The notes under the pieces: model-generated
The model's input: the letters and a program-made list of their open reading frames with translations, nothing else
What the model was told of the DNA's origin: nothing
Database searches by the model: none
Assembly: GCF_010672085.1 (NCBI RefSeq)
Contig: NZ_JAAHHT010000025.1
Coordinates: 55,200-106,346 of the forward strand
DNA from: Okeania sp. SIO3I5
GTDB lineage: Bacteria; Cyanobacteriota; Cyanobacteriia; Cyanobacteriales; Microcoleaceae
Length of the DNA stretch: 51,147 nt
Direction: 5' to 3'
Shown: positions 1 through 26,398 of the stretch, piece by piece
Layout of the letters: each line of letters opens with the position of its first letter
Numbering within the stretch: position 1 is the stretch's first letter
Translations under genes and position numbers: made by a program

Positions 1-430
1 TTTTCATCGTCAAATATCTATCTAAATAGATATTAGGGAGTAGGGAATAGGGAATAAGGAATAGAGAAGAATTAAAAAACTGTATTTTCTGAAAAAGATA
101 ACTGCTCTATTCTATGTTGATTTTCAGGAAGAGTAAAATTATCACATCTGATTCCTGATTGCTCTATTTGTTTGTCTACAAAGTTGGAAAATTTTCTAGT
201 AGGAGATTTTTCATCGTCAAATATCTATCTAAATAGATAGTAGGGAATAGGGAATAAGAAATAGAGAAGAATTAAAAAACTGTATTTTCTGAAAAAGATA
301 ACTGCTCTATTCTAGATTTATTTTCAGGAATAGTAGAATTCTCACATCTAATTCCTGATTACTCTATTTGTTTGTCTACAAAGTTGGAAAATTTTCTAGT
401 AGGAGATTTTTCATCGCCAAATATCTATTG
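1..430. repeat. Direct duplication, ~200-bp unit (two units plus start of a third)
   Basis: A segment that begins at the window edge with TTTTCATCGTCAAATATC recurs at 208 and again, only its first part, at 408. The two full units differ by a few substitutions and short indels and each carries a GGGAATA-type heptamer run near its start. No reading frame spans the units. From 430 to 593 there is AT-rich leader DNA for the following gene and I see nothing else in it. Confidence 0.85.
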
Positions 431-11841: not shown

Positions 11842-12880
11842 AGTTCAGTAGGGTGCGTTAGACGACTTAAATTTAGACCATGAAAAGAATTCAGTAATCT
11901 GTCGCACGGCACCATTGAATATGTGTCACTCCACTACTCTTTTCTTGCTACAAAATATAGGATTAATTTGATATAGGATTATTTGTTTTTCTGGAGAGCG
12001 ATCGCTAACTTTTTGGATTATTTGCGAAGTAATATTGATGATTTATTATTGGGTGTTTGTCTGGGAGTTATCTGTCTGAGAGAGTAAAGTTTTTATCTGA
12101 GGATTTTCTAATAATTTTGTACGACTACTTAATAGCAATAAATGTAGATTGGGTTGAGGAACGAAACCCAACAATAATCTTTCTCCCTAATGCACAGTTT
12201 TAGCTGTGTCAGTCCAGTAGGGTGCGTTAGACGACTTAAATTTAGACCATGAAAAGGATTAAGTAATCTGTCGCACGGCACCATTGAATATGTGTCACTC
12301 CACTACTATTTTATTGCTACAAAATATAGGATTAATTTGATCTAGGATTATTTATTTTTCAGGAGAGCGATCGCTAACTTTTTGGATTATTTGCGAAGTA
12401 ATATTGATGATTTATTATTGGGTGTTTGTATGGGAGTTATCTGTCTGAGAGAGTAAAGTTTTTATCTGAGGATTTTCTAATAATTTTGCACGACTACTTA
12501 ATAGCAATAAGTGTAGGTTGGGTTGAGGAACGTTAGCGTAGCTTATCCGCAGGATAAACCCAACAATAATCTTTCTCCCTAATGCACAGTTTTAGGTGAA
12601 ACAGTCCAGTAGGGTGCGTTAGACGACTTAAATTTAGACGATGAAAAGGATTAAGTAATCTGTCGCACGGCACCATTGAATATGTGTCACTCCACTACTC
12701 TTTTCTTGCTACAAAATATAGGATTAACTTGATATAGGATTATTTGTTTTTCTGGAGAGCGATCGCTAACTTTTTGGATTATTTGCGAAGTAATATTGAT
12801 GATTTATTATTGGGTGTTTGTGTGGGAGTTATCTGTCTGAGAGAGTAAGGTTTTTATCTGAGGATTTTCTAATAATTTTG
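11842..12880. repeat. Three direct repeats (~390 bp) containing copies of the 3' end of the downstream TPR gene
   Basis: Units start with GTAGGGTGCGTTAGACGAC near 11848, 12216 and 12607. Each carries a long identical block that includes a HIP1 site and about 45-50 bp matching the last ~16 codons of the TPR gene ending at 12807 (TCTGTCTGAGAGAGTAAAG onward). In the first two units this block breaks off at AATAATTTTG and changes to unrelated sequence; in the third it continues into the intact gene. So the tail of the gene and its downstream DNA have been duplicated twice. Units 1 and 2 end with the TGACACAGCTAAAACTGTG element. The stretch 11647-11841 holds nothing recognisable. Confidence 0.9.
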
Positions 12881-15350
12881 CTGCATCTGCTAATAGTTTT
12901 TCACCCCAAAGTTCTTTTTTCAGGCGTTGCAAGTTTCCCCAATTTTTGTCTAATTTTAATCCTGCTTCGGCTATTGCTAAACCTTCTGAAATTTCACGTT
13001 TGTTGTAGAGGGCAACTCCTATTGCTAATTGAGGTTCTACAAATTGGTTATTAATTTCAAGTGCTGCTTGCCAATGTTCTATTGCTTCATCTATTTTTCC
13101 CATTTCATATTTAACTAAGCCAAGATTACTAATGGCAACTTTATAATCTGGTTTAATTTCTAGAGACTTTTGATATGCAAATATTGCTTGTTGATAAAAT
13201 TTTAACTGTAAGAAAACACTACCTTTACCAAACCAAGCATAGTGATAGTCTGGCTGAATTTCTAAAGCTTTTTCATAAGCAGCGATCGCCTCTTCATATC
13301 TTTCTAAATTTCTCAGTGCATCTCCCTTATTTTTCCAAGCATAGTGATAGTATGATTTAATTTTGATCGCTTTTTCATAAGCAGCAAGAGCCTCTTCATA
13401 TTTTTCTAAATCTTCCAGTGCAATGCCTTTACCATTCCAAGCATAGTGAAAATCTGGTTGAATTTCTAAAGCTTTTTCATAAGCAGCGATCGCCTCTTCA
13501 TATCTTTCTAATTTTCTCAGTGCATCTCCCTTATTGTCCCAAGCGTTGTGATAATCTGGTTGAATTTCTATCGCTTTTTCATAAGCCGCGAGTCCCTCTT
13601 TATATCTTTCTAAATTTTCCAGTGCAATGCCTTTACCATTCCAAGCATAGTGATAATCTGGTTGAATTTCTATCGCTTTTTCATAAGCAGCGATCGCCTC
13701 TTCATATCTTTCTAATTTTCTCAGAGAATCTCCCTTATTTTTCCAAGCATAGTGATAGTCTGATTTAATTTCTATCGCTTTTTCATAAGCAGCGAGCGCC
13801 TCTTCATATCTTTCTAAATTTTCCAGTACAATGCCTTTACCATTCCAAGCATAGTCATCATCTGGTTGAATTTCTATCGCTTTTTCATAAGCAGCGATCG
13901 CCTCTCCATATCTTTCTATTTTTTTTAGTAGAAAACCTTTAAAATTCCAAGCATAGTGATAGTCTGGTTTGATTTCTATAGCCTTTTCATAAGCAGCAAG
14001 AGCCTCTTCATATCTTTCTAAATTTTCCAGTGCATATCCTTTACTATCCCAAGTATAGTGATAGTCTGGTTTGATTTCTATCGCTTTTTCATAAGCAGCA
14101 AGCGCCTCTTCATATCTTTCTAAATTTTCCAGTGCATATCCTTTACTATCCCAAGCATAGTAATAGTCTGGTTTAATTTCTAGAGCTTTATCATAAGCAG
14201 CGATCGCCTCTTCATATCTTTCTAATTTTCTCAGTGCATCTCCCTTATTGTCCCAAGCATAGTGATAGTCTGGTTTAATTTCTAAAGCTTTTTCATAAGC
14301 AACAAGAGCCTCTTCGTATCTTTCTAACTTTTCCAGTGCAATACCTTTATTGTTCCAAGCATAATGATAGTCTGGTTTAATTTCTAAAGCTTTTTCATAA
14401 GCAGTGATCGCCTCTTCATATCTTTCTAACTTTCTCAGTGCATTACCTTTACCATTCCAAGCTTTGTAATAGTCCGGTTGAATTTCTAAAGCCTTTTCAT
14501 AAGCAGCGATCGCCTCTTCATATCTTTCTAATTTTATCAGTGCATTACCTTTACCATTCCAAGCTTTGTGATATTCCGATTCAATTTCTAAAGCTTTTTC
14601 ACAAGCAGCGATCGCCTCTTCATATTTACTTTCTGATTCTAGGATTAATCCCTGTTCAACCAATAGCTTTCCTTTCTCTTCATCAATATTATTTTCATCT
14701 TCTACTAAATCTTGAATATCCAAAAATTTTTGCCTTCTTTCTTCAGCAGTTAAATCCCCATATTTCTGATAATCTCCCTCCTGAATAATTCGAGATGATT
14801 CTTGAGCTACTAACTCCGGATCAGACTTAAATTCAAAAGTATTAGAACGCCAATCAAAAAAGTCTGGGCAACGATGAATAAAATATTTCAAAGCATACAC
14901 AGGCACAATAAAAACAAAGCAAATATCAAAATCATCCCTGAATCTTTCTCGATGTTGATTCAGGTGACTTAAAATCGGAGGTACACCCTTTTCACTGTAA
15001 CTATATCTCTCATAACTACTCCAGCCATTTTTCAGTTTATTCAACTCATATTCATACAGAGAAACTTCCAAACCAGTCACAAACAAAACATTAATATCCA
15101 GTCGATTTGGCAAATCAGCAACAAGATTATATAAATTCTTTATTGGTTCATTTAACCGCAAAACATCAACTTTTTTCTGAGGAATATCTTGCTTAACTTT
15201 CTCAATTAATTTTGTTCCTTCTGCGGGAGAAGATTCCACAAACAATAACCTAAAACCAAACGTTCTTTTGAGACATCTAACTATAGCTTTATATTCCGTT
15301 TCTGCGTCCTTCAATAAATTCTCATCCCAGTCTGTTAAATCTTGGTTCAT
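12807..15350 (-). CDS. TPR-repeat protein with N-terminal degenerate P-loop-like domain (ATPase partner, copy 1)
   Basis: An 847-residue soluble protein. Residues 1 to about 223 form a domain shared with the 23373-25085 protein: LLFVESSPAEGTKLIEKV looks like a strand-loop-helix where a Walker A should be but lacks GKS/T, NVLFVTGLE resembles a Walker B strand, and FDICFVFIVP and PDFFDWRS are further conserved strands. I infer a catalytically dead P-loop/STAND-like fold. About 17 TPR units of 34 residues (224-800) follow, many nearly identical (xAWNxKGxALxxLERYEEA), then a short tail. HIP1 octamers lie in the EAIAA codons at exact multiples of 102 bp. TPR arrays bind proteins; the partner here is probably the ATPase at 18146-19495, from which it is separated by a TnpB element. 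The function is unknown. Confidence 0.9.
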   Translation of the reverse strand: MNQDLTDWDENLLKDAETEYKAIVRCLKRTFGFRLLFVESSPAEGTKLIEKVKQDIPQKKVDVLRLNEPIKNLYNLVADLPNRLDINVLFVTGLEVSLYEYELNKLKNGWSSYERYSYSEKGVPPILSHLNQHRERFRDDFDICFVFIVPVYALKYFIHRCPDFFDWRSNTFEFKSDPELVAQESSRIIQEGDYQKYGDLTAEERRQKFLDIQDLVEDENNIDEEKGKLLVEQGLILESESKYEEAIAACEKALEIESEYHKAWNGKGNALIKLERYEEAIAAYEKALEIQPDYYKAWNGKGNALRKLERYEEAITAYEKALEIKPDYHYAWNNKGIALEKLERYEEALVAYEKALEIKPDYHYAWDNKGDALRKLERYEEAIAAYDKALEIKPDYYYAWDSKGYALENLERYEEALAAYEKAIEIKPDYHYTWDSKGYALENLERYEEALAAYEKAIEIKPDYHYAWNFKGFLLKKIERYGEAIAAYEKAIEIQPDDDYAWNGKGIVLENLERYEEALAAYEKAIEIKSDYHYAWKNKGDSLRKLERYEEAIAAYEKAIEIQPDYHYAWNGKGIALENLERYKEGLAAYEKAIEIQPDYHNAWDNKGDALRKLERYEEAIAAYEKALEIQPDFHYAWNGKGIALEDLEKYEEALAAYEKAIKIKSYYHYAWKNKGDALRNLERYEEAIAAYEKALEIQPDYHYAWFGKGSVFLQLKFYQQAIFAYQKSLEIKPDYKVAISNLGLVKYEMGKIDEAIEHWQAALEINNQFVEPQLAIGVALYNKREISEGLAIAEAGLKLDKNWGNLQRLKKELWGEKLLADAAKLLENPQIKTLLSQTDNSHTNTQ

Positions 15351-15358
15351 AGCTTTTG

Positions 15359-15835
15359 AAATAGCTCACACGGATTATGCCACAGATACACGGATTAATT
15401 TGTTAGTCTTATTCTAATTTGCTTCATTGCTTTTGATAGACAATTTAGCTTATTTTATATGGATAGCTCACACCGATTATGCCACGGATAGCTCACACCG
15501 ATTATGCCACGGATAGCTTACACCGATTATGCCACGGATAGCTCACACCGATTATGCCACGGATAGCTCACACTGATTATGCCACGAATAGCTCACACGG
15601 ATTATGCCACGGATAGCTCACACCGATTATGTCACGGATAGCTCACACGGATTTTGCCACGGATACACGGATTAATTTCTTAGTCTTATTCTAATTTTAA
15701 GCGATCGCTTCCTTCATTACTTTTGAAATATAATTTAGTTCAGCTCACACGAATAGCTCACACCGATTATGCCACGGATAGCTCACACGAATTATGCCAC
15801 GGATACACGGATTAATTTGTTGGTCTTATTATGGC
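15359..15835. repeat. Tandem array of 25-bp units (GGATAGCTCACACCGATTAT...)
   Basis: Eight contiguous 25-bp units run from 15461 to 15660, with single-base variation. Partial copies lie at 15359-15395 and 15743-15835, joined to a CACGGATTAATTTGTTAGTC phrase. Nearly the same sequence occurs inverted at 2966-3065. The array lies just upstream of the TPR gene start (15350), in its leader. The 25-bp period rules out coding. Confidence 0.9.
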
Positions 15836-15965
15836 AAAGATACACGAATTAATTTGTTAGTCTTATTGTTAAGCGATCGCTAAACCTGAAAGATTTAATT
15901 ATCAATTATTAATTATTCGGAAAATCTTATCTTCAACAATGGTAAAAAATTATGGTTAAAACTAA

Positions 15966-16130
15966 TTTAATTCAGATGGTGCAAGATTAGGTTGGTTAAT
16001 TGATAGTAAAAACCGGAAAGTAGAGATTTATCGGCAAAATCAAGAAGTGGAAATTTTGGAAGATCCTAATAATTTATCTGGGGAAGATGTATTACCTGGA
16101 TTTATTTTAGATTTAACAGAAGTTTGGTAA
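15966..16130 (+). pseudogene. Uma2-family nuclease remnant (C-terminal ~54 codons)
   Basis: A plus-strand frame with no start codon encodes a peptide starting SDGARLGWLIDSKNRKVEIY and ending LSGEDVLPGFILDLTEVW, then TAA. This is the conserved C-terminal part of Uma2 (DUF820, PD-(D/E)XK-type) proteins, where GWLIDP and LPGF are typical. The remaining ~130 residues are absent; a stop lies in frame directly upstream at 15963. It is a decayed fragment and the only plus-strand coding trace within the island. Confidence 0.75.
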
Positions 16131-16235
16131 AGGAACGCTATACAAATGGTTGTTGCTGACATGAATGGGTAGTGCAAAATTTGTAGTAGTAGACTGACAC
16201 ATCTTAAATAGTAGGTGATTAATCCCTCACGCCTG

Positions 16236-16690
16236 GGTGCTTCAGAAAATGTATCGACTATTTCTCTATCCGCAATAAAAGGAAAATTTGCCGATTCATT
16301 TTCTCACGGCGGAGTGCTTCAGAAAATGTATCGACTATTTCTCTTGACGCAACAGAAGAAAAATTTGCCGATTCATTTTCTCACGGCGGAGTGCTTCAGA
16401 AAATGTATCGACTATTTCTCTATCCGCAATAAAAGGAAAATTTGCCGATTCATTTTCTCACGGCGGGGTGCTTCAGAAAATGTATCGACTATTTCTCTAT
16501 CCGCAATAAAAGGAAAATTTGCCGATTCATTTTCTCACGGCGGAGTGCTTCATAAAATGTATCGACTATTTCTCTTGACGCAACAGAAGAAAAATTTGCC
16601 GATTCATTTTCTCACGGCGGAGTGCTTCAGAAAATGTCTTGACTATTTCTCTTGACGCAACAGAAGAAAAATTTTCCCATTCACCTGCTG
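16236..16690. repeat. Tandem array, six 77-bp units related to the 1.4-2.1 kb array
   Basis: GTGCTTCAG recurs at 16237, 16314, 16391, 16468, 16545 and 16622, an exact 77-bp period. The units share the framework TGCTTCAGAAAATG-ATC...CGCAAT with the 76-bp array at 1398-2153 but differ elsewhere. The 146-codon open frame across it simply reads the repeat in rotating frames and is not a gene. Confidence 0.9.
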
Positions 16691-16711
16691 TACAATACCT
16701 ACACAATTCCT

Positions 16712-16739
16712 GCAAAACTAGGAAAAACCTGGGTTTTGC
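16712..16739 (-). other. Right-end hairpin / probable omega-RNA 3' region
   Basis: GCAAAAC-TAGG-AAAAA-CCTG-GGTTTTGC forms an imperfect hairpin about 20 bp beyond the tnpB stop. In IS605-type elements the guide (omega) RNA overlaps the 3' end of tnpB and the right end, so this is where it would lie. A perfect 12-bp palindrome, GGAGCCGGCTCC, at 16770-16781 inside the last codons of tnpB could be a scaffold stem. This RNA is inferred, not shown. Confidence 0.45.
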
Positions 16740-16760
16740 CTTTGCAGCTTGCTTCCTGTT

Positions 16761-17991
16761 TCAACCTGGGGAGCCGGCTCCTTCCAGTTCGCAGGCGTAA
16801 TTTCGGGTGCAGCCCACCCTAGTTTTTTGATTAACTTCCCCATATTGGGATAACACAATTGCCGCGTTTAAGTCGCGGTCTATAACTGTTTCACAATAAG
16901 GACATTTATAGATGCGGTCACTTAGCTTTAGTTCTGAGTAAATATGACCGCAATTACTACAAGTTTTAGATGATGGAAACCACTGGTCAGCTAATACAAC
17001 ACTTCCGCCACTAGCAACAATTTTGGTTGTCAATCGTTGCTTAAATTTATAAAAACCTTGGCGGGCTACTGATGCTGCTAACTTTCGATTTTGCATCATG
17101 CCTTTGACGTTTAAATCTTCCAAGCAAACGTGCTTAATATTGTCTGCTAAATTCGTGGTAGTTTTTAAGGGTAAAATCCTTGCGAATATTAGCAATATGA
17201 GCATGATATTTGGCCAGCTTTTTGCAGTATTTAATCGCATTTTTAGAAGCTGGCTTACCCTGGCCGCCTAATTGTTTATTGCGGTTATGCCACTGGAAGT
17301 TGGCCAACTTTAATTGCTCTTTTTTAATTGACTCAGGAAGAGCAATAGCCATGTTTTCTGCCGATGAAGCTATTGTGCCAAACTGTTTAATACCTACATC
17401 AATACCAAAAAATTCTTGAGGACGTTCATCTAATAACGGATGAGCTGGCAATTTCTCTGCTTCTATAGCAAAACTTACAAACCATCTTTCCCCTGTTTTG
17501 CTAATAGTAAAAGTTTGAGTAGCTGTTGTGTAAGGCACTGGTTCAAATAATCTAAAAGTCCCTAATGTTGGTATTTTTACTTTGTTACCAGCTTTAACTG
17601 TAATTTTCCCATTGCTATAATCAACTGCAAAACTTTGTCGCTCTTTTTTGCGCTTAAATTTTGGTTGCTTGCTAGTTCCTTCTTTGTACCTTTTAAATGC
17701 TTTTCCTAAATTAATAAAAGCATTTTGATAAATTCGAGAGGAATAGTTATTTGTCCAAGCATATTCTGGCTGTTTTTTTACATAATTAGTAAAGACTTTC
17801 TTGGCTTCGTTTATGCGTTGGTTATAACTAAAATTAACCTCTTTACCCTGCTTATTTACTTTGGTTATGCCCTTGGTTTGATTAACCATATTAAGGCCAT
17901 AATTATACACAAAGCGGGCATAACCCGCACACTGAGCCATCAACAATCGTTCTTTATTGTTGAGCTTTAACTCCAGCTTAATTGCATACAT
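16761..17991 (-). pseudogene. tnpB: TnpB (RNA-guided nuclease of IS605 elements), interrupted by a frameshift
   Basis: The N-terminal part reads from ATG 17991 (strong AAGGAGGTGA upstream; a GTG at 18000 is less likely) to TAA inside 17134-17136 and holds the YARFVYN motif and the first RuvC acid in FFGIDVGIKQFG. The C-terminal part is in another frame and ends at 16761. It has the second acid (VCLEDLNVKGM), a zinc ribbon (CSNCG...CPYC) and the third acid (DRDLNAA). The two frames join cleanly at a run of five T/A residues at 17162-17166: with one base fewer the protein would read KDFTLKTTTNLADNIKHV, as in intact TnpB, about 410 residues. All catalytic residues survive. It is either a recent one-base insertion, a slippage site or a sequencing error. 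Confidence 0.88.
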
Positions 17992-18024
17992 TTTTATCAC
18001 CTCCTTGTTATTACTATAGGCTAT

Positions 18025-18076
18025 TTGCTGAAAAATTTCTCGATATCAAGGCTATTTTACTAGATTTTTCCAGCAA
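18025..18076. other. Imperfect palindrome upstream of tnpB (possible left end)
   Basis: TTGCTGAAAAAT and ATTTTTCCAGCAA pair with one bulged base around a 27-nt loop. The position just outside tnpB suits the left-end hairpin of an IS200/IS605-type element. Beyond it, 18119-18145 carries a TGACACGGCTAAAATTGTG copy of the dispersed element, ending next to the ATPase stop. Confidence 0.5.
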
Positions 18077-18145
18077 TTGCCAGGGATATCAAGACTAGCT
18101 AATCGGCTCCATTTTTTAATGCACAATTTTAGCCGTGTCAGTCTA

Positions 18146-19495
18146 CTACTCGACTTTATTATTAACAGTTTCAACAGCCTTTTTAAACTCAGGAATACCC
18201 TTAATCAAAGGATGAACATCATACCAACGTTTCCTCTCTCCTTGATCATAATAACAATATTCCAAAATACAGCGATTAAACATTAAACTGCGGTAATTAT
18301 CATCATTAGGTACTTGCCTAGAAAACGCCACTTCAGCTAACCTTTTCCATTGGTTATCATCCACAGTTTTCCGATAAATATCTCTAGCATCTGTAATTGA
18401 TCTGCGGATAGCATTTATCGGAATAGGCAAATCATCCGTATAGTCAAAAGCCGACTGAATTAATAATAGTAAATTGCGCACATGACCTCCACTCATTATG
18501 CAGAGTTGATTCAAAGTTTCTTCACTATCAAATATCTCAGTTTCCAGGGAAAGATTAGGAGCAAAATTTTCCACTCGCTTGATAATTAACTCCTTAATTT
18601 TATTAAATCCTGGTTCGTATTTACTACCATCAGGTTTCTGCACCATAATCATCGGTAAAACCTGGGGAGCTGAATAAAATTCTCTCAAGTCCGCTGCTCT
18701 ATGGGAGTAAACCATTGAGATAGGAACCGTATAAATAATGTGGCAATTTAAAGCCTTTAATTGTTCAGAGCGATCGATAAAAATATGGTCGTGGTTAGTC
18801 CGTTTATCCTCTTGCAGAACAGGCACTATCCGGTCTAAATTATCAACTATTACCGCTAATTCTGTACAACCATTAGGTAAATTACTTTTAGCATCATCAA
18901 TAAATTCATTCAAAACTTTAATCAGAGTTACAGTGTGGGGATTAATTTTCTGCCGAATTTGATTGCGGAGACTAGGTACTGCCCTTAAATTTGCCGTTAA
19001 CTTAGCAAAAGCAGATATTTGTACATCAACATTTGCCTTCTCAAAGTCAATTTCTGTCAGAGCTAAATCCTTCAATTCTTGCCAGCGAGTCTCCAACCAA
19101 TTAAGTAGAGGACTAGGTTTAGCAACATCCTTTAAATCTTGCAATAAATGACGAGTACAAGCCAGTAAAATATCTGTATATTCGGCATCCTCCGCATCAA
19201 TATCCTGTTCATCCGCAGCAAAATAAACCACAAATATTTTCTCTGATTCTAAATGTTGTTTAAGTCTGAGTAATTCTGTAGATTTTCCTGCCCCTCGATG
19301 ACCCGCATAAAGTTGGCAAGTCATTCTTTTAGCACGTCTAATTTTTCTGCCTAAATCTACTAAAACATCTCCATCTCCCCGCACTTCTTTACAGTCAACA
19401 TAAAGAGGATCTCCTGCCGGTAATGGTTCAAAAGGATCGAAAGAATTGTAGAGATTTGTTAGTATTTTTTCTATCTCTATTTTTGTATTAGTCAT
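18146..19495 (-). CDS. P-loop AAA-type ATPase (TPR partner, copy 1)
   Basis: A 449-residue ATPase taken from ATG 19495. The frame stays open to 19567, but those extra 24 codons translate a GGGAATA heptamer run and are not conserved. Walker A is GHRGAGKS (65-72), Walker B AVIVDNLDR (214-222), followed by HDHIFIDRSEQL, a sensor-like strand CHIIYTVPISMVYS and a GGHVRNLL helix (337-344). The C-terminal ~70 residues (NRCILEYCYYD, WYDVHPLIKGI) resemble a winged-helix lid. It is a close paralogue of 25082-26398 over its whole length. No membrane segment is seen. By analogy with copy 2 it should work with a TPR protein, here 12807-15350, now 2.8 kb downstream behind a TnpB element. The biological role is unknown; a STAND-like switch or regulator is plausible. 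Confidence 0.9.
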   Translation of the reverse strand: MTNTKIEIEKILTNLYNSFDPFEPLPAGDPLYVDCKEVRGDGDVLVDLGRKIRRAKRMTCQLYAGHRGAGKSTELLRLKQHLESEKIFVVYFAADEQDIDAEDAEYTDILLACTRHLLQDLKDVAKPSPLLNWLETRWQELKDLALTEIDFEKANVDVQISAFAKLTANLRAVPSLRNQIRQKINPHTVTLIKVLNEFIDDAKSNLPNGCTELAVIVDNLDRIVPVLQEDKRTNHDHIFIDRSEQLKALNCHIIYTVPISMVYSHRAADLREFYSAPQVLPMIMVQKPDGSKYEPGFNKIKELIIKRVENFAPNLSLETEIFDSEETLNQLCIMSGGHVRNLLLLIQSAFDYTDDLPIPINAIRRSITDARDIYRKTVDDNQWKRLAEVAFSRQVPNDDNYRSLMFNRCILEYCYYDQGERKRWYDVHPLIKGIPEFKKAVETVNNKVE

Positions 19496-19499
19496 AATA

Positions 19500-19540
19500 A
19501 TAGGGAGTAGGGAATAGGGAATAGGGAATAGGGAATAGAG
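19500..19540. repeat. GGGAATA heptamer run (STRR type)
   Basis: Tandem GGGAATA/GGGAGTA heptamers just upstream of the ATPase start. Similar runs occur near 33, 239, 21528, 22707, 23137, 23235, 32069 (GGGAACA), 40550 and 50438. These are the short tandemly repeated heptamers known from filamentous cyanobacteria. Confidence 0.8.
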
Positions 19541-20300
19541 AGTAGGGTGCGTTTCGCGGAGCGACATGAAAAGGCGCTTACCAGAAACTATCGTTGAACT
19601 GTCAAAAATGACATAGCGCCGTAACGCACCATTGAGTAGGATTCAAACATATTCTGATGAAAAATTTCTACAATTGGCATCTATTAAAAATCTCCTTTTT
19701 TTTATTTGGTATTATCAAAATTATTTAGAGAGTAGGGTGCGTTTCGCGGAGCGACATGAAAAGGCGCTTACCACAAATTATCGTTGAACTGTCAAAAATG
19801 ACATAGCGCCGTAACGCACCATTGAGTAGGATTCAAACATATTCTGATGAAAAATTTCTACAATTGCCATCTATTAAAAATCTCCTTTTTTTGATTTGGT
19901 ATTATCAAAATTATTTAGAGAGTAGGGTGCGTTTCGCGGAGCGACATGAAAAGGCGCTTACCACAAATTATCGTTGAACTGTCAAAAATTACATAGCGCC
20001 GTAACGCATCGTTGAGTAGGATTCAAACATATTCTGATGAAAAATTTCTACAATTGGCATCTATTAAAAATCTCCTTTTTTTTATTTGGTATTATCAAAA
20101 TTATTTAGAGAGTAGGGTGCGTTTCGCGGAGCGACATGAAAAGGCGCTTACCACAAACTATCGTTGAACTGTCAAAAATTACATAGCGCCGTAACGCACC
20201 GTTGAGTAGGATTCACACATATTCTGATGAAAAATTTCTACAATTGCCATCTATTAAAAATCTCCTTTTTTTATTTGGTATTATCAAAATTATTCAGAGA
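19541..20300. repeat. Four tandem 190-bp units, mosaic of ATPase leader, TPR-gene fragment and hairpin element
   Basis: AGTAGGGTGCG recurs at 19541, 19731, 19921 and 20111, exactly 190 bp apart. Read on the minus strand, each unit has an AAGGAGA ribosome binding site and ATG(C/G)C that match the 5' leader of the ATPase gene at 26398. Directly after comes GTAGAAATTTTTCATCA, matching a stretch of TPR-gene coding sequence (VEIFHQN, see 22848-23128). Then comes a hairpin element whose arms are GGTGCGTT/AACGCACC and GGCGCT/AGCGCC. The result is a short open frame of about 30 codons repeated in each unit. Whether it is translated is unknown. Confidence 0.9.
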
Positions 20301-20760
20301 GTAGTAGACTGACACAACTAAAATGGTGCGTTACGACGGATTGCTAAATCTCTTTCATAATCTGAATTTAAGCCGTCTAACGCACCCTACAATTTTGCTA
20401 TTTTTGCATTAATCATAATTAGTATTATAAAAATTTTTCAGAGAATAGGGTGCGTTAGGCGCTTACCACAAACTATCGTTGAACTGTCAAAAATTACATA
20501 GCGCCGTAACGCACCATTGAATAGAATTCACACATATTCTATGTCTATTTTTGCATTAATCATAATTAGTATTATAAAAATTCTTCAGAGAGTAGGGTGC
20601 GTTAGGCGCTTACCACAAACTATCGTTGAACTATCAAAAATTACATAGCGCCGTAACGCACCATTGAGTAGAATTCACACATATTTAATGGTGCGTTACG
20701 ACGGATTGTTAAATCCCTTTCATCGTCTAAATTTTTGCCGTCTAACGCACCCTACTAGAC
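20301..20760. repeat. Cluster of GTGCGTTA...TAACGCAC hairpin elements
   Basis: At least four compact elements: 20324-20390, 20448-20514, 20593-20663 and 20691-20754. Two (20448, 20593) have arms GGTGCGTTA-GGCGCT and AGCGCC-G-TAACGCACC around a ~37-nt loop. Two have arms GGTGCGTTACGACGG and CCGTCTAACGCACC. They are REP/MITE-like with no coding. The same ends appear in the 190-bp units, in the ~390-bp repeats at 11.8-12.8 kb and, degenerate, at 27609-27652. Confidence 0.85.
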
Positions 20761-20787
20761 TACTTTTTTTATTCGGCATTATAACCA

Positions 20788-20832
20788 TTATTCAGTCAGC
20801 AATTTGCAAAGCATTTCAGCAATTTCAGTTTT
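20788..20832 (-). pseudogene. 3' remnant (~14 codons) of a MazF/PemK toxin gene
   Basis: The minus strand encodes KTEIAEMLCKLLTE and a stop, which matches the C-terminal TEIGEKLCKLMTE of the intact toxin at 21691-22047. It begins inside the end of the upstream TPR-antitoxin frame in another reading frame. About 290-300 bp of the toxin gene, including its start and active site, are missing. This is a deletion scar, not a functional gene. Confidence 0.8.
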
Positions 20833-21505
20833 TTATTGAATAGGTAAAAGGTTTGCCATCTGTTAATTGATATATATCTTCTTCCGAGTCTTTTAGAAAA
20901 TCAAATACTGGATTTGTAGCTGCTGCGTGAAGCCATTCTTGTTCGTCTATTTCCTCTGAATTTTCCCAGTCTAATTCATCTTCAAATTGTTCAAATTCAA
21001 CAGCAGTTTCTTGGGAATTATCTGTCTGAGAGAGTAAAGCTTTTATCTGAGGATTTTCTAATAATTTTGCTGCATCTGCTAATAGTTTTTCGCCCCAAAG
21101 TTCTTTTTTCAGGCGTTGCAAGTTTCCCCAACTTTTATCTAATTTTAGTGCTACTTCAGCTATTGCTAAACCTTCTGGAATTTCACCTTTGTTGTAGAGA
21201 GCAACTCCTATTGCTAATTGAGGTTCTACAAATTGATTATTAATTTCAATAACAGCTTGCCAATGTTCTATAGCTTCATCTACTTTTCCTATTTCATATT
21301 TAACTAAGCCAAGATTAATAATAGTAAATTTATCGTCTGATTTAATTTCTAGAACTTTTTCATAAGCAACTATTGCTTGTTGATAAAATTTTAACTGTGA
21401 GAAAGCAACACCTTTACTGAACAAAGATTCGTAATAGCCTGGTTGAACTTCTAAAGCTTTTTCATAATCAGCGATCGCCTGTTCATATTGTTCTAAATTT
21501 TCCAT
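20825..21505 (-). CDS. Truncated TPR protein with antitoxin-like tail; toxin gene deleted downstream
   Basis: A 226-residue frame. Residues 1-125 are TPR units nearly identical to the last repeats of the 12807-15350 protein, residues 126-165 match its C-terminal tail (LLENPQIKALLSQTDNS), then an acidic linker leads to DEQEWLHAAATN...DFLKDSEEDIYQL and DGKPF (187-220), the tail typical of antitoxins paired with cyanobacterial MazF/PemK toxins. It starts at an ATG that replaces an internal Leu codon of the parent (GCACTGGAAAAT to GCAATGGAAAAT), with no Shine-Dalgarno sequence, so expression is uncertain. The last residues (SIKN) arise from the deletion that removed the toxin. It could be an orphan antitoxin, or decaying sequence. 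Confidence 0.7.
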   Translation of the reverse strand: MENLEQYEQAIADYEKALEVQPGYYESLFSKGVAFSQLKFYQQAIVAYEKVLEIKSDDKFTIINLGLVKYEIGKVDEAIEHWQAVIEINNQFVEPQLAIGVALYNKGEIPEGLAIAEVALKLDKSWGNLQRLKKELWGEKLLADAAKLLENPQIKALLSQTDNSQETAVEFEQFEDELDWENSEEIDEQEWLHAAATNPVFDFLKDSEEDIYQLTDGKPFTYSIKN

Positions 21506-21540
21506 TGCAATAAATATAATAATAGGGAGTAGGGAGTAGT

Positions 21541-21616
21541 TAGTAGATTTTTATCTACTGGCTGATTATATGGTTAATTAATGAGACTTGATATTATTCT
21601 GGATGACTCATAATTT
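21541..21616. repeat. Dispersed module GTAGATTTTTATCTA...GATGACT (copy 1 of 3)
   Basis: About 75 bp upstream of the TPR-antitoxin frame. Copies 2 and 3 lie at 22742-22835 and 23272-23365, each immediately following (in plus coordinates) a GGGAGTA heptamer run and a TPR-fragment start. So start fragment, heptamers and this module have been duplicated as a block. The GATGAAAAATTTCTACA phrase and a leader-like CATCTATGAAAAATCTCC follow at 21627-21665. Confidence 0.8.
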
Positions 21617-21690
21617 TTTATTTTTTGATGAAAAATTTCTACAGTTGCCATCTATGAAAAATCTCCTTTTTTGATTTGGTATTATAAAAA

Positions 21691-22047
21691 TTATTCAGTC
21701 ATCAATTTGCAAAGCTTTTCACCAATTTCAGTTTGTGTATTTGATGATAATTTACCAATCTCTCGCTTAATTAAAGAAGGACGAAGAGATACAATAAAAT
21801 CTAACTTAATCACAGAAGATTTACGCAAACCAGAATCAGCAAAATCTGGATGATTAGTATCTAATAGAATATCAGTTTCTAGCAATTTAGTAGGAACTTT
21901 ACTTGTGATAAAAGCCATCATAATACGATTATATTGCCCCACTGGATTAGTAAGGCAAACAGCAGGACGTATCTTAGTTGATGATAAATCATCGAAGGGA
22001 AAAGGTACTAAAACTATTTTGCCTTTAGTAAGTGAAGGGTTTGCCAT
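21691..22047 (-). CDS. MazF/PemK-family type II toxin (endoribonuclease)
   Basis: A 118-residue protein starting MANPSLTKGKIVLVPFPFDD, with the family features GxIVLVPFPFxD, SSTKIRPAVCL (about 22-32) and a later ITSKVP strand. MazF/PemK toxins are dimeric, sequence-specific mRNA interferases neutralised by a C-terminal peptide of the partner antitoxin. The ATG lies inside the end of the upstream TPR-antitoxin frame, overlapping it by 23 bp, the classic antitoxin-toxin overlap, so translation is probably coupled. Full length and no frameshift, so presumably active if expressed. The 3' end runs into a copy of the ATTTGGTATTATAAAAATTATT leader repeat. Confidence 0.93.
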   Translation of the reverse strand: MANPSLTKGKIVLVPFPFDDLSSTKIRPAVCLTNPVGQYNRIMMAFITSKVPTKLLETDILLDTNHPDFADSGLRKSSVIKLDFIVSLRPSLIKREIGKLSSNTQTEIGEKLCKLMTE

Positions 22048-22690
22048 CTTCTAATGTATATATGTCCTCTTCCGGGTCTTTCAGAAAATCAAATATTGCA
22101 TTTGTAGCTGCTGCGTGGAGCCATTCTTGTTCGTCTATTTCGTCTGTTTCCCAATCTAATTCATCTTCAGGTTGTTCAAATTCAACAGCAGTTTCCTTGG
22201 AATTATCTGTCTGAGAAAGTAAGGCTTTTATTTGAAGATTTTCTAATAATTTTGTGGCATCTGCTAATAGTTTGTCACCCCAAAGTTCTTCTTTGAGACG
22301 CTGCAAGTATCTCCAACTTTTATCTAATTTTAGTGCTACTTCAGCTATTGTTAAACCTTCTGGAGTTTGACCTTTATTGTAGAGGGCAACTCCTATAGCT
22401 AATTGAGGTTCTACAAGTTTGTTATTAATTTGAAGTGCTGCTTGCCAATGTTCTATTGCTTCATCTATTTTTCCCATTTCATATTTAACTAAGCCAAGAT
22501 TAATAATGGTAAATTTATCGTCTGGTTTAATTTCAATAGCTCTTTCATAAGCAACTATTGCTTGTTGATAAAGTTTTAACTGTGAGAAAGCGACACCTTT
22601 ACTAAACCAAGCTTCGTGAGAGTCTGGTTGAACTTCTAAAGCTTTTTCATAATCAGCGATCGCCTGTTCATATTGTTCTAAATTTTCCAT
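22025..22690 (-). CDS. TPR-antitoxin fusion, partner of MazF/PemK toxin
   Basis: A 221-residue protein: about three and a half TPR units (1-125), the TPR-gene tail region (126-163), an acidic linker (164-184) and an antitoxin-like end with DEQEWLHAAATN, DFLKDPEEDIYTL and DGKPF (186-219). The stop lies inside the toxin gene, which starts 23 bp earlier. There is no Met between the last TPR and the antitoxin end, so the antitoxin peptide can only be made as a fusion, unless a non-ATG start is used. The start is the same Leu-to-Met ATG seen in the other truncated copies, with no Shine-Dalgarno sequence. The antitoxin role is inferred from position and the DGKPF-type tail; a DNA-binding domain is not visible. 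The TPR part could make toxin control depend on a TPR partner. Confidence 0.82.
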   Translation of the reverse strand: MENLEQYEQAIADYEKALEVQPDSHEAWFSKGVAFSQLKLYQQAIVAYERAIEIKPDDKFTIINLGLVKYEMGKIDEAIEHWQAALQINNKLVEPQLAIGVALYNKGQTPEGLTIAEVALKLDKSWRYLQRLKEELWGDKLLADATKLLENLQIKALLSQTDNSKETAVEFEQPEDELDWETDEIDEQEWLHAAATNAIFDFLKDPEEDIYTLEDGKPFTY

Positions 22691-22847
22691 TGCAATAAAT
22701 ATAAAAATAGGGAATAGGGAGTAGGGAGTAGGGAATAGTTTGGTAGATTTTTATCTATTGGCTGATTATTATGGTTAATTAATGAGACTTGATATTATTC
22801 TGGATGACTAATAGTTATAAGTCTAGTTGAGAAAGGTTATCGGTTTC

Positions 22848-23128
22848 TTAGACTATCATTCTCAAAACTTTAGTAAAAATTTCTTTCAATTTATACCAGC
22901 CTATTTTAGTGAGAAAATTTTTTATGTTTTGATGAAAAATTTCTACAGGAAAATCAGGATTAATTTCCTCGCATTTTTTGCACTGGCATAACCTTCTTTA
23001 AAACGGCGTAGTTTTATCAACGCAACACCTCTGAAATACCAAGCTTGATAATAGTCTGGATTAATTTCTAGAGCTTTATCAAAAGCAGCGATCGCCTGTT
23101 CATATTGTTCTAAATTTTCCATTGCCAT
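22848..23128 (-). pseudogene. Fragment of the TPR gene (3' part), frameshifted
   Basis: From the shared Leu-to-Met ATG the frame reads ENLEQYEQAIAAFDKALEIN and continues through one TPR closely matching residues ~475-515 of the 23373-25085 protein. It then shifts frame near GCAAAAAATGCGAGG. In the new frame the match resumes as NPDFPVEIFHQNIKNFLTKI and continues to EIFTKV, ending at a stop at 22848. The parent reads NPDFDEEIYSQMIKNLLTKI at this place, so VEIFHQN is a natural variant of the gene tail. This identifies the origin of the GTAGAAATTTTTCATCA phrase found in the neighbouring repeats. Confidence 0.85.
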
Positions 23129-23180
23129 AAATATTTAGGGAGTAGGGAATAGGGAATCGGGAAAAGTTTGGTAGATTTTT

Positions 23181-23222
23181 ATCTATCGCCTGTTCATATT
23201 ATTCTAAATTTTCCATTGCCAT
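23181..23222 (-). pseudogene. Minimal TPR start fragment
   Basis: About 40 bp encode MAMENLE-stop-YEQAI: the same ATG-bearing start fragment as at 21505, 22690 and 23128, with CAA changed to TAA, followed at once by the GATTTTTATCTA module. It is the shortest of four copies and clearly non-functional. Confidence 0.75.
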
Positions 23223-23372
23223 AAATATAATAATAGGGAGTAGAGAGTAGGGAGTAGGGAGTAGAGAAAAGTTTGGTATATTTTTGTCTATTTGCTGATT
23301 ATTATGGTTAATTAATGAGACTTGATATTATTCTGGATGACTAATAGTTATGAGTCTAGTTGAGGAAAGTTA

Positions 23373-25085
23373 TTAGTTTATTAAACCCATAAATCTCCAA
23401 AGTCTAGTAAAAATTTCTTTCAATTTATACCACCCTATTTTAGTGAGAAGATTTTTGATCATTTGACTATATATTTCCTCATCAAAATCAGGATTAATTT
23501 CCAGACTTTTCATTACACTGGCATTACCTTCTTGAAAACGGCGTAGTTTGATCAACGCAACACCCCTGAAATACCAAGCTTGATAATAGTCTGGATTAAT
23601 TTCTAGAGCTTGATCAAAAGCAGCGATCGCCTCTTCATATATTCCTAATTTTATCAGTAAAATTCCCTTATTTTGCCAAGTATTATAATGATACTCTGGT
23701 TTAATTTCTAGAACCTTTTCACAAGCTGAAATAGCCTCTTCATATTTGCCTAAATATGACAGACTATAGCCTTTACTGTTCCAAGCTTGGTGACAGTTTG
23801 GTTCAATTTCTACAGCTTTATCAAAAGCATAAATTGCCTGTTCATGTCTGCCTAAAGATGAAAGAACATGGCCTTTATTGTACCAAGCGGTGTGAGAGTC
23901 TGATTTAATTTCTATAGCTTTTTCATAAGCAGCGATCGCCTGTTCATATTTGCCTAAATTTATCAGTGCATTGCCTTTATAAAAACAGGCTTCGTCTTGG
24001 TCTGGTTTAATTTCTAAAGCTTTATCATAAGCAGAAATCGCCTGTTCATATTTTTCTAAATTTATCAGTGCATTGCCTTTCAATAGCCAGCTTTCGTCAT
24101 CATCTGGTTTAACTTCTAGAGCTTTATCATAAGCAGAAATTGCCTCTTCATATCTGCCTAAATCTGATAGTGAGTTTCCTTTGAAAATCCAAGAATCGTG
24201 AGAGTTTTGTTTAATTCCTAAAGCTTTATCATAAGCAGAAATTGCCTCTTCATATCTGCCTAAATCTGACAGAGTATTCCCTTTATTGTTCCAAGCATAG
24301 TAATAGTCTGGTTTAATTTCTAGAGCTTTATCATAAGCAGCGATTGCTTCTAACTTTTTACCAATACTATTGTTTAACCTACCTTGCTCAATTAATAAAT
24401 CTACCTTTTTTTCCAGAGTTTGATTATCCTCATCAATCAAACTTTGAATAACAATTAATTCTTTCTTGCATTCTTGAGGTGTGAGAGTTTCATAATCTTC
24501 TTTTCCTATTCTTTTGTAATAAGTGTGGAAAGTTTCATACTCTAAATTTTCCTTATCCATGGGAAAACGAAACACCCCAGAACGCCAATCAAAAAAATCT
24601 GGAGAACGATTAATCAGATAATCCATCGCAAACCTGGGCAACAAAAACACAAAGCAAATATCAAAATTATCCCTAAACCTTTCTCGCTGCTGATTCAAAT
24701 TAATCAAAACACGAGGAACTCCCCTCTTACTAATAGAAATAACCTCTTTCTCATCCAAACCTCTTGCTCTCATTTCATCCTCATATTCATAGAGAGAATA
24801 TTCCAAACCAGTCACAAACAAAATATCAATTTTTTTCAGATTAGGTAAATTTTCGACTCGATTGTAAAAATTATAAACACTCTCATCTAAAGCCAAAACT
24901 TCCGCTCTTTCCCGTGGAATATCTCGGCGAATTTTCTCCATAATTTTTGTTCCCTGTGCAGGCGAACATTCCACAAACAATAAACTAAAACCCTCACTAA
25001 ATCTAATAGTATTTACTAAAGCCTTATATTCCTCTGCAAACGTGAACGATAAATCCTCTTCCCAAACAAATTTTTCTCCATTCAT
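23373..25085 (-). CDS. TPR-repeat protein with N-terminal degenerate P-loop-like domain (ATPase partner, copy 2)
   Basis: A 570-residue paralogue of the 12807-15350 protein. The N-terminal domain (1 to about 225) has LLFVECSPAQGTKIMEKIRR in place of a Walker A loop, DILFVTGLEYSLYEYE, NLNQQRERFRDNFDICFVFL and PDFFDWRSGVFRF; the GKS/T needed for ATP hydrolysis is absent. About nine TPR units follow (232-540) and the C-terminal ~30 residues (LLTKIGWYKLKEIFTRLWRF) form an amphipathic, aromatic end different from copy 1. The ATG overlaps the stop of the ATPase gene as ATGA, so the two are very likely co-translated and probably form a complex. The specific function is not known. Confidence 0.9.
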   Translation of the reverse strand: MNGEKFVWEEDLSFTFAEEYKALVNTIRFSEGFSLLFVECSPAQGTKIMEKIRRDIPRERAEVLALDESVYNFYNRVENLPNLKKIDILFVTGLEYSLYEYEDEMRARGLDEKEVISISKRGVPRVLINLNQQRERFRDNFDICFVFLLPRFAMDYLINRSPDFFDWRSGVFRFPMDKENLEYETFHTYYKRIGKEDYETLTPQECKKELIVIQSLIDEDNQTLEKKVDLLIEQGRLNNSIGKKLEAIAAYDKALEIKPDYYYAWNNKGNTLSDLGRYEEAISAYDKALGIKQNSHDSWIFKGNSLSDLGRYEEAISAYDKALEVKPDDDESWLLKGNALINLEKYEQAISAYDKALEIKPDQDEACFYKGNALINLGKYEQAIAAYEKAIEIKSDSHTAWYNKGHVLSSLGRHEQAIYAFDKAVEIEPNCHQAWNSKGYSLSYLGKYEEAISACEKVLEIKPEYHYNTWQNKGILLIKLGIYEEAIAAFDQALEINPDYYQAWYFRGVALIKLRRFQEGNASVMKSLEINPDFDEEIYSQMIKNLLTKIGWYKLKEIFTRLWRFMGLIN

Positions 25086-26398
25086 CGCACCATATCCTTA
25101 AAATTTTGTATCCCCTTAATCAATGGGTGAACATCATACCAAGTTTTCTTTTCTCCCTCTTCATCAAAGTAAATATATTCCAGCAAACAACGATTAAATA
25201 ATAAACCACGATACTGTTGATTATTTAAGACATTTTTAGAACGAAAAACATCCACCAATACTTGCCATTCTTCTGCTTGAACTGACCTTCTATAAGAAAG
25301 TCTTGCCTCCGTAATTGCTCTTTGTACAACCCTCGCAGAAATAGGTAATTCATCATCACAACGTTTAATTACACTTTGCATCAAAAACATTAAATCCCGA
25401 ACATGACCTCCACTCATTAAGCAAACCTTATCCAAAACTTCTCGACTTTCAAATAACTCCGTTTCTAAAGATAAATCTGACTTAATTCCCTTAACCCGTC
25501 TATCAATAATTTCCCTCATTTTAGCAACTCCCAATTCATAAACTTCTCCCTCTGGAGTCTCCACCATAATCATCGGTAAAACTTGAGGTTCATCATATTC
25601 AATTTTCAGATTAGGAGCTTGATTAGAATAAACCATTGAAATAGGAATCGTATAAATTGTATGGCAATCTAAACCTTTTAATTGAGCGCTACGATCGATA
25701 AAAATTTCATCGTGATTACTACGTCCGTCTGGCTGAACATTTGGTGTAATGCGGTCTAAACTATCAGCAATCATTACCAATTTAGAACCAGAGCCAAGTT
25801 TGTTTGTAGCATCACGAATAAAAGCATTTATCCCCTCAATCAAACTTTCAGTATAAGGATTAACTTTCTCCCTAATTTTTCTTCTTAAAGTAGGTTCAGC
25901 TCTGATATTTGCCGTAATTTTTGCATATTGACTAATTTGTGATTCAACTGCCAAACTTTCCAAAGATATTTCTGTATTTGCTAAATCTTTTAAATCCTCC
26001 CACCGATATCTTAACCAATCTAATAATGGTTTAGGATTAGCTTGTTTTAATTGCTCCAATAAATTTCTAGTACAAGCCAACAAAATATCAGCATATTCCG
26101 TATCTTCCAGATTAATATCCTTCTCATCCGCAGCGAAATAAACCACAAAATATCCATTATCTTCCAAGTGTTTTTTCAGTCGTAAAAGTTCAGTTGACTT
26201 ACCCGCACCTCGATGTCCGGCATAAAGTTGACAAGTATTATTATCAGAGAATTCAATATTCGTAGCCAAATCTTGAATAACATCTCCATCCCCTCGAACT
26301 TCCCGACAATCAACATATACTGGACTATCAGGTTTTAGAGGTTCAAAAGGTTTAAAAGCATTGAATAATCTTTTCAATAAATCTCTTTGATCTGCCAT
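25082..26398 (-). CDS. P-loop AAA-type ATPase (TPR partner, copy 2)
   Basis: A 438-residue ATPase. Walker A GHRGAGKS (61-68), Walker B LVMIADSLDRI (207-217), conserved HDEIFIDRSAQL, a sensor-like CHTIYTIPISMVYS, GGHVRDLMFL and a C-terminal lid with NRCLLEYIYFD and WYDVHPLIKGI. It aligns end to end with 18146-19495. A ribosome binding site AAGGAGAA lies 12 bp upstream of the ATG, and this leader has been copied into the 190-bp repeats at 19541-20300. It overlaps the TPR gene by 4 bp (ATGA), the strongest evidence that ATPase and TPR protein are one unit. Upstream lies an array of 105-bp repeats, so the promoter may be inside or beyond it. Confidence 0.92.
   Translation of the reverse strand: MADQRDLLKRLFNAFKPFEPLKPDSPVYVDCREVRGDGDVIQDLATNIEFSDNNTCQLYAGHRGAGKSTELLRLKKHLEDNGYFVVYFAADEKDINLEDTEYADILLACTRNLLEQLKQANPKPLLDWLRYRWEDLKDLANTEISLESLAVESQISQYAKITANIRAEPTLRRKIREKVNPYTESLIEGINAFIRDATNKLGSGSKLVMIADSLDRITPNVQPDGRSNHDEIFIDRSAQLKGLDCHTIYTIPISMVYSNQAPNLKIEYDEPQVLPMIMVETPEGEVYELGVAKMREIIDRRVKGIKSDLSLETELFESREVLDKVCLMSGGHVRDLMFLMQSVIKRCDDELPISARVVQRAITEARLSYRRSVQAEEWQVLVDVFRSKNVLNNQQYRGLLFNRCLLEYIYFDEEGEKKTWYDVHPLIKGIQNFKDMVR

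What the first reader, a model, noticed from the sequence alone, without database searches (positions are those of the whole stretch)
21691..22690. TPR-antitoxin fusion overlapping a MazF/PemK toxin
The frame upstream of the toxin is TPR repeats (from the neighbouring TPR gene) fused in frame to an antitoxin-like end (DEQEWLHAAATN...DGKPF), overlapping the toxin start by 23 bp. No internal Met allows a stand-alone antitoxin. This would tie the neutraliser of an mRNA interferase to a TPR module that could interact with the ATPase/TPR system next door.
Basis: partly seen in the sequence, partly recalled or inferred. Interest (0 to 1): 0.75.

Follow-up and report, generated by a model that had tools for sequence, protein, structure and literature searches.

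The report
Antitoxin tail grafted onto TPR protein
In this cyanobacterium the short peptide that should neutralise an RNA-cutting toxin is carried on the end of a piece of an unrelated repeat protein, and related genomes show the same peptide-plus-toxin pair attached to several other unrelated proteins, so the neutraliser looks like a portable tag.

Summary
A 221-aa ORF (22025-22690, minus strand) joins about four TPR repeats in frame to an antitoxin-like tail and overlaps an intact MazF/PemK gene (21691-22047) by 23 bp. The tail is not unique. The same ~40-residue C-terminal peptide ends small stand-alone antitoxins in cyanobacteria, archaea and Chloroflexi; in other cyanobacteria it ends Z1 helicase-like proteins, other TPR proteins, an Mrr-type nuclease domain and an unknown 216-aa protein, mostly with a toxin of this kind next. 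On a toxin tree the partner part changes at least 13 times; TPR partners need three changes. The tail with its EDELDWE linker is closest to the Z1-borne form, and a sister Okeania carries a Z1-start/tail relic beside the neighbouring ATPase gene. Both window copies show purifying selection (dN/dS 0.29). Best reading: a chimeric type II antitoxin, a linear neutralising tail carried by the end of a TPR protein, probably moved from a Z1-tail-mazF cassette. A link to the ATPase/TPR system is untested. Neutralisation, toxicity and expression were not shown.

The parts
22025..22690 (-). Fusion gene B, 221 aa: TPR part + linker + antitoxin tail
22199..22690 (-). TPR part of B (residues 1-164), matching the C-terminal end of the 847-aa TPR protein up to 5 residues before its stop
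   Evidence: AF2 helical repeats 2-161
22148..22168 (-). Linker EDELDWE (residues 175-181), resembling the joint of Z1 proteins and the tail
   Evidence: inference
22025..22144 (-). Antitoxin tail (residues 183-221 and stop), covered by profile A1
21691..22047 (-). MazF/PemK-family toxin, 118 aa, with R27 and T48 in the places of the MazF catalytic Arg/Thr (that these places are catalytic is recalled)
22025..22047 (-). 23-bp overlap of antitoxin end and toxin start
   Evidence: same 23-bp overlap in L117, L119, L120, L123
20825..21505 (-). Fusion gene A, 226 aa: second copy, no toxin after it
20760..20831 (-). Relic of the toxin 3' end next to copy A (63 of 72 bases match the end of the intact toxin and what follows it); almost the same junction as in Okeania SIO2F4
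12807..15350 (-). 847-aa TPR protein whose C-terminal end matches the TPR part of the fusions; carries no tail
25082..26398 (-). STAND-like ATPase upstream (AAA_16 26.9 bits, below the cut-off 32.6); its counterpart in SIO2F4 (87.6% over 1363 bp) has the Z1/tail relic just upstream

Best explanation
Copy B and the next gene form a type II toxin-antitoxin pair with a chimeric antitoxin. The neutralising part is the disordered C-terminal tail (about residues 183-221), a linear motif homologous to the tail of small stand-alone antitoxins. The usual N-terminal domain has been replaced by about four TPR repeats taken from the C-terminal end of a TPR gene of the neighbouring ATPase/TPR loci. The tail and mazF probably arrived as a cassette from a Z1-tail-mazF locus. 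Translation of the toxin is coupled to the fusion through the 23-bp overlap, and the tail binds the MazF as it is made. The TPR part mostly acts as a scaffold that carries and stabilises the tail. Copy A is a toxin-less duplicate that may still supply antitoxin. Shown by sequence: the fusion, the homology of tail and toxin, the duplicate, the toxin deletion, constraint, and recurrence on other hosts. Inferred: neutralisation by the tail, translational coupling, Z1 origin (the least sure), and the passive role of the TPR.
For: Tail homology to small antitoxins beside the same MazF subfamily. In the 195 genomes of the order the query toxin gives 23 strong matches (E<=1e-30; the next is 1.7e-19). 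Three are broken: the G037 frameshift and the G112:C123 stop were read, and G060 gives the same partial match with one TAA. Of the 20 unbroken ones, 19 have an in-frame tail ORF directly upstream; the other, G069, has a decayed Z1+tail. The reverse, a tail ORF without a toxin frame of 80 aa or more found after it, holds for 40 of 102 (some at contig ends). dN/dS of copies A and B is 0.29 (Sd 29.0, Nd 38.0, Fisher 3e-6), 0.31 in residues 1-165, 0.23 in residues 166-221. The model of B has TPR helices up to residue 161 and residues 163-221 under pLDDT 50 (only 3 sequences). MazF fold: best Z 14.7, 2.1 A over 102 residues to 9ikd; toxin profile to 4of1 MazF 2.5e-7. Z1 origin: the best tail matches outside the genome by E-value are Z1-borne (80%); intact Z1 proteins without the tail end in an acidic stretch after KFVFMFN or KFAFMFN, and the partial frame of G094 ends EEIEDDLD; the Okeania SIO2F4 relic joins a match to the Z1 N-terminus (28 residues, 46%, E 0.003) to the tail, upstream of the counterpart of the window ATPase gene. 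Partner labels need 13 changes on the toxin tree.
Against: No expression, toxicity or binding data. In G069 and in L147 (uncultured Nostoc) an open toxin lies behind a decayed host: L147 has three in-frame stops in the TPR part and no in-frame ATG/GTG/TTG before the tail. So either the tail can be made without the host, or these toxins are silent. The fusion was not found in six other genomes of the genus (the tail profile hits only SIO2F4 among them, a relic), so it is lineage-specific. Against the Z1 origin: on the toxin tree the smallest well-supported set with the window toxin holds two toxins of small MNxKLI-type antitoxins from the same family, not Z1 rows (98/87), and the Z1 N-terminal match is short. 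The A/B divergence is small and gene conversion could bias it. The tail+toxin model gives no interface confidence and is an artificial join. Promoter-like sites in the region are no more than chance.
Confidence: 0.68

Rival explanations
1. Decaying accident: recombination between abundant TPR repeats joined a TPR fragment to the remains of a TA pair; the fusion is one of several TPR fragments here and has no selected role.
For: The ORF starts in the middle of a TPR repeat. Further TPR fragments lie beside it (22943-23128), and the leader of the two fusion copies recurs above the fragment at 23215. Copy A has lost its toxin. SIO2F4 holds only a relic, and the other genomes of the genus that were searched lack the fusion.
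Against: Both frames stay open over 221/226 codons with dN/dS 0.29; copy B keeps an intact toxin; the same type of fusion recurs in other genera.
Confidence: 0.17
2. The functional antitoxin is a short product started inside the gene (TTG129, about 93 aa, or Met72 in copy B), so most of the TPR part does not belong to it.
For: TTG129 is preceded by GGAG (B) or GGGG (A), and a 10/12 promoter-like site lies at 22354-22327. About 93 aa is near the size of the small antitoxins. L147 keeps an open toxin behind a broken host.
Against: GGGG...TTG is also in the tail-less TPR gene at 12807-15350, so it is ordinary coding sequence. Promoter-like sites are not in excess (9 found, shuffles mean 11.9). 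Residues 1-165 are constrained between the copies.
Confidence: 0.2
3. The TPR part is a sensor: it docks with the neighbouring ATPase/TPR system and releases or holds MazF according to that system's state.
For: The TPR part matches the C-terminal end of a TPR protein that lies near ATPase genes, and TPR partners need three separate changes on the toxin tree. Z1 hosts match a PADLOC defence model (Helicase_II, 311 bits).
Against: Hosts are many and unrelated. Host parts look eroded in G315 and SIO2F4. TPR genes are very abundant here (201 matches to the fusion in the own genome at E<=0.01), so repeated capture may be chance.
Confidence: 0.12

Closest known systems
MazEF / PemIK type II toxin-antitoxin systems
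   Same: MazF/PemK-fold toxin; antitoxin gene upstream and overlapping; C-terminal neutralising segment (inferred)
   Different: The antitoxin has TPR repeats instead of a DNA-binding N-terminal domain; the tail matched no antitoxin in the PDB search
Small antitoxins of about 80 aa with the same tail (e.g. Planktothrix rubescens PCC7821 L160, Methanosarcinales L136)
   Same: Same tail and same MazF subfamily next to it
   Different: Short N-terminal domain without a Pfam match in the two scanned; not a repeat protein
Z1-tail-mazF loci (Planktothricoides sp. SR001 and three other genera by code)
   Same: Tail at the very C-terminus of a large non-antitoxin protein, mazF frame next; closest tail and linker
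   Different: Host is a Z1 helicase-like protein of 772-779 aa (PF10593 178 bits in G037) with a small gene before it (no Pfam match in G037, no PADLOC match in G115); in SR001 the mazF is frameshifted
Linear, graftable neutralisation motifs of antitoxins (Ernits et al. 2023, PMC10440598, passages seen)
   Same: Their passages say a linear neutralising motif can be joined to other carriers; Phd-C fused to SUMO neutralises its toxin
   Different: There a laboratory graft and known antitoxin domains; here natural grafts on large non-antitoxin proteins
HicA classes with unusual partners (PMC10865869, passages seen)
   Same: TA parts found in odd genetic contexts
   Different: There toxin domains sit in fusions or beside viperins; here the antitoxin tail is fused

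Membership tests
Type II TA system of the MazF/PemK kind | Toxin of the PemK/MazF family | tested here: met
   PF02452 48.4 bits, cut-off 23.1; toxin profile to MazF in the PDB 2.5e-7; fold Z 14.7
Type II TA system of the MazF/PemK kind | Antitoxin gene adjacent, usually upstream and overlapping | tested here: met
   23-bp overlap
Type II TA system of the MazF/PemK kind | Antitoxin tail homologous to tails of antitoxins beside the same toxin subfamily | tested here: met
Type II TA system of the MazF/PemK kind | Toxicity of the toxin and neutralisation by protein-protein contact | not testable with these tools
   needs co-expression and binding assays
MazE antitoxin family (AbrB-like N-terminal DNA-binding domain) | N-terminal DNA-binding domain | tested here: not met
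   Pfam families matched by copy B are TPR and other helical repeats (29 at E<=1, best 25 seen); the TPR match fills residues 2-166
TPR repeat proteins | Tandem TPR motifs | tested here: met
   PF00515 4.6e-26, 3 stretches; helical repeats in the model
Toxin-antitoxin-chaperone or guard-type TA system | Third partner controls antitoxin stability or release | not tested
   no interaction data; the ATPase/TPR genes are only near

The most novel reading that the evidence does not exclude
The tail-mazF pair is a minimal addiction cassette that spreads by landing in frame at the C-terminus of large accessory proteins (Z1 helicase-like, TPR, Mrr-type nuclease), so that the host protein itself becomes the antitoxin. 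Loss or damage of the tagged gene then frees MazF, which guards accessory or defence genes against loss and could couple their state to mRNA cleavage. In Okeania the cassette has hopped from a Z1 gene to the TPR part of an ATPase/TPR system.
Probability: 0.25. Interest if true: 0.8.

Novelty: new variant of a known kind. Interest (0 to 1): 0.5.

Why it matters
It would show in nature what had been shown by laboratory graft: a short linear antitoxin motif can be moved onto carriers that are not antitoxins. The recurrent fusions give ready test cases for whether the carrier matters, and whether toxin-antitoxin pairs can guard single genes by making the gene product the antitoxin.

Tried and rejected
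PDB match for the single toxin sequence: none at E<=1; the toxin profile A3 found MazF. PDB match for the tail: three rows, best E 0.74, unrelated proteins. NCBIfam gave no family for the toxin at E<=1; PADLOC none at E<=0.01. Alignment A2 of the artificial tail+toxin chain with toxins and tails together went wrong (toxins were laid on the tail) and was dropped; A3 has toxins only, so the tail had no alignment depth, and the model's tail (blocks of pLDDT 62-73) is not used as evidence of binding. A first dN/dS table had an offset error for the 847-aa gene and was replaced. In the first tail reading minus-strand loci were read on the wrong strand; one search corrects them. Weak long-frame tail matches (G140, G075 C49, G100, G184; E 0.008-0.077) were fetched; the profile scan included these loci and lists no tail in them. 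Promoters and terminators: at or below chance. Z1 relic in the window itself: tblastn found only the linker/tail stretches. Literature, in an open-licence library only: no paper with 'Z1 domain'+MazF+antitoxin; antitoxin+tetratricopeptide+MazF+cyanobacteria gave 3 papers, listing seen; one search gave 5, one search gave 93 of which 20 were listed; TPR+antitoxin+mRNA interferase+'fused to'+MazF gave one Myxococcus sporulation paper, listing seen; 'tpr' occurs 0 times in PMC2701414 and in PMC10440598. So 'not described' rests on these listings and passages.

Full report
What is in the sequence. On the minus strand, 22690-22025 encodes 221 aa with TPR repeats and an antitoxin-like end, and 22047-21691 encodes a 118-aa toxin of the PemK/MazF family (48.4 bits, cut-off 23.1); the two overlap by 23 bp. 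The window lies in a 10.5-Mb genome of 562 contigs with 12 matches to the PemK family, some broken. Its genus code is shared with G557, whose 3790-bp contig has the length and coordinates of a record of Okeania sp. SIO2F4. Further along, 21505-20825 encodes a second TPR-tail protein (226 aa, 84% identical) without a toxin. DNA just past its stop matches the end of the intact toxin gene (63 of 72 bases), so the toxin body has been deleted. SIO2F4 carries a relic with nearly the same junction, so the toxin-less form is probably older than this strain, unless the same deletion happened twice.

Where the TPR part comes from. Residues 2-166 match the C-terminal end of the 847-aa TPR protein at 12807-15350 (75%), up to 5 residues before its stop. 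The fusion starts in the middle of a repeat. Of six other genomes of the genus, five hold a match to the TPR part at E<=1e-30 (one of them only 37% identical); no match reaches beyond residue 170. The tail profile finds only SIO2F4 among them, as a relic.

Where the tail comes from. In the own genome the tail is only in the two copies (E<=1). It occurs in 64 of 195 genomes of the order with the single query at E<=0.1, and in 34 of 386 genomes drawn from the phylum and 32 of 61 of the family with the profile at E<=0.001. A scan of named genomes with one short pattern gave 47 loci, also in Methanosarcinales, Chloroflexi and others. The held loci (from then on, chosen by tail, toxin or Z1 matches, so biased; rows with the same last 60 residues dropped, among them the G060 one) give 102 distinct tail ORFs. 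My motif-based labels: 40 small antitoxins of the MRAIETTG kind, 20 of the MNxKLI kind (called DUF2281like in my scripts, but the one scanned, L042, has no DUF2281 match), 16 Phd-like, 8 TPR, 4 Z1, 2 DUF433-like, 1 Mrr, 1 unknown 216-aa, 1 Z1 relic and 9 others; 62 have a toxin frame of 80 aa or more directly after them. Pfam backs Z1 (178 bits), Mrr_cat (45 bits), DUF433 (33 bits), and UPF0175 following a truncated tail in G147; Phd/YefM is just under its cut-off (29.7 against 29.8), and one row of the 'others' has a DUF2281 match below its cut-off (22.0 against 26.5). The two MRAIETTG-kind proteins scanned have no Pfam match.

The toxin tree. With 62 toxins and 116 columns (few for so many rows), the label of the N-terminal partner needs 13 changes over nine labels (shuffled mean 32.7). 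TPR needs 3 changes, all forced by well-supported branches. Z1 needs 4, of which 2 are forced. The window toxin has a longish branch; its nearest row by path is the Z1-type L119 (68% identity), but its smallest well-supported set holds two MNxKLI-kind rows of the same family (98/87), which does not favour a Z1 origin of the toxin. Gain cannot be told from loss.

The Z1 link. In the same 195 genomes, 15 hold Z1 relatives at E<=1e-60; 12 of these are at 67% identity or more. Four have an unbroken Z1-tail ORF (G115, G152, G136, G037) and G060 a broken Z1 with the tail; a mazF frame follows in all five, but in G037 it is frameshifted near its start and G060 gives the same partial match. G183, G191 and G090 end without a tail, and those genomes have no strong toxin of this kind (best 1.7e-19). 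G166 ends EDELEWDDSEEIDEN, which I read as a relic of the tail. G094 is a partial frame ending EEIEDDLD. G180's frame is truncated, and G127 was not read. The Helicase_II model of PADLOC ends at residue 714 of the 772-aa Z1 protein of G115, before the tail. The Okeania linker EDELDWE resembles the Z1-tail joint, and SIO2F4 has a 28-residue match to the Z1 N-terminus joined to the tail, upstream of the counterpart of the window ATPase. I infer that the tail came from a Z1 locus; the short matches and the toxin tree leave real doubt.

Signs of function. Copies A and B: 29.0 synonymous and 38.0 nonsynonymous differences, dN/dS 0.29; 0.31 in residues 1-165 and 0.23 in 166-221. Against the 847-aa gene the TPR parts give 0.53 (A) and 0.59 (B), so constraint there is weaker. 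In Z1 hosts the pairs G115-G152, G115-G037, G115-G136 and G037-G136 give 0.09-0.17 for the host part and 0.06-0.09 for the tail in three of the four (the tail of G115-G136 is saturated). In the Trichocoleus-type TPR hosts the host part gives 0.30-0.37; their tails are too alike to judge. Of 20 unbroken strong toxins in the order sample, 19 have an open tail ORF upstream. Against this, G069 has an open toxin behind a decayed Z1-tail, and L147 has an open toxin behind a TPR part with three stops.

Structure. The toxin part of the model matches MazF structures (Z 14.7; 9ikd is MazF-mt3). The model of fusion B (three sequences only, mean pLDDT 66.9) is helical to residue 161 and of very low confidence beyond. 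The tail's contact with MazF could not be tested: the tail+toxin chain is artificial, monomeric and without interface scores.

Reading. The tail is the antitoxin, and the N-terminal part is exchangeable. This agrees with passages of PMC10440598 on linear neutralising motifs. Natural carriage on large non-antitoxin proteins is the new element; I saw no description of it in the listings and passages (one search listed 20 of 93 papers). Whether the TPR part is a passive scaffold, a link to the ATPase system, or bypassed by an internal start (TTG129) is open. I favour the scaffold because host parts vary freely and look eroded in G315 (one TPR left) and SIO2F4.

Noticed in passing
20825-21505 and L172 1080-1480: Toxin-less copy A and Okeania SIO2F4 share nearly the same toxin deletion junction; the SIO2F4 tail is further split by a ~120-bp repeat that also occurs at window 41-167 and 241-367 (74-75%).
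   Followed up: partly
L044, L045, L047 (Trichocoleus type) and Phd-type loci such as L059: The tail is present twice in tandem (two EDIYT..DG motifs), perhaps one per subunit of a MazF dimer.
   Followed up: no
L122 1609-3378: TPR protein with a truncated tail running into a UPF0175 antitoxin domain: one TPR protein with two antitoxin segments in series.
   Followed up: partly
L235 (G069): Decayed Z1 plus double-type tail in front of an open MazF: a Z1 host joined to the other tail type, suggesting another exchange.
   Followed up: partly
L147 5200-6060: TPR part with three in-frame stops (two look like former Gln codons, one like a Glu codon) while tail and toxin stay open.
   Followed up: no
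19632-20167: Three near-identical 51-aa frames at 190-bp spacing between the ATPase gene and fusion A; other repeats follow to about 20690.
   Followed up: no
16761-18000: Two overlapping frames that look like a frameshifted TnpB-type transposon protein (named from memory, not tested).
   Followed up: no
L117 1319-1798, L116 2635-3114: A 159-aa gene (no Pfam match in L116, no PADLOC match in L117) directly precedes the Z1-tail gene; a two-gene candidate unit.
   Followed up: partly
12807-26398: Two ATPase genes and two long TPR genes with similar N-terminal parts look like duplicated ATPase/TPR loci; the ATPases match PADLOC PDC-S20 weakly (1.7e-6 and 2.7e-4).
   Followed up: partly
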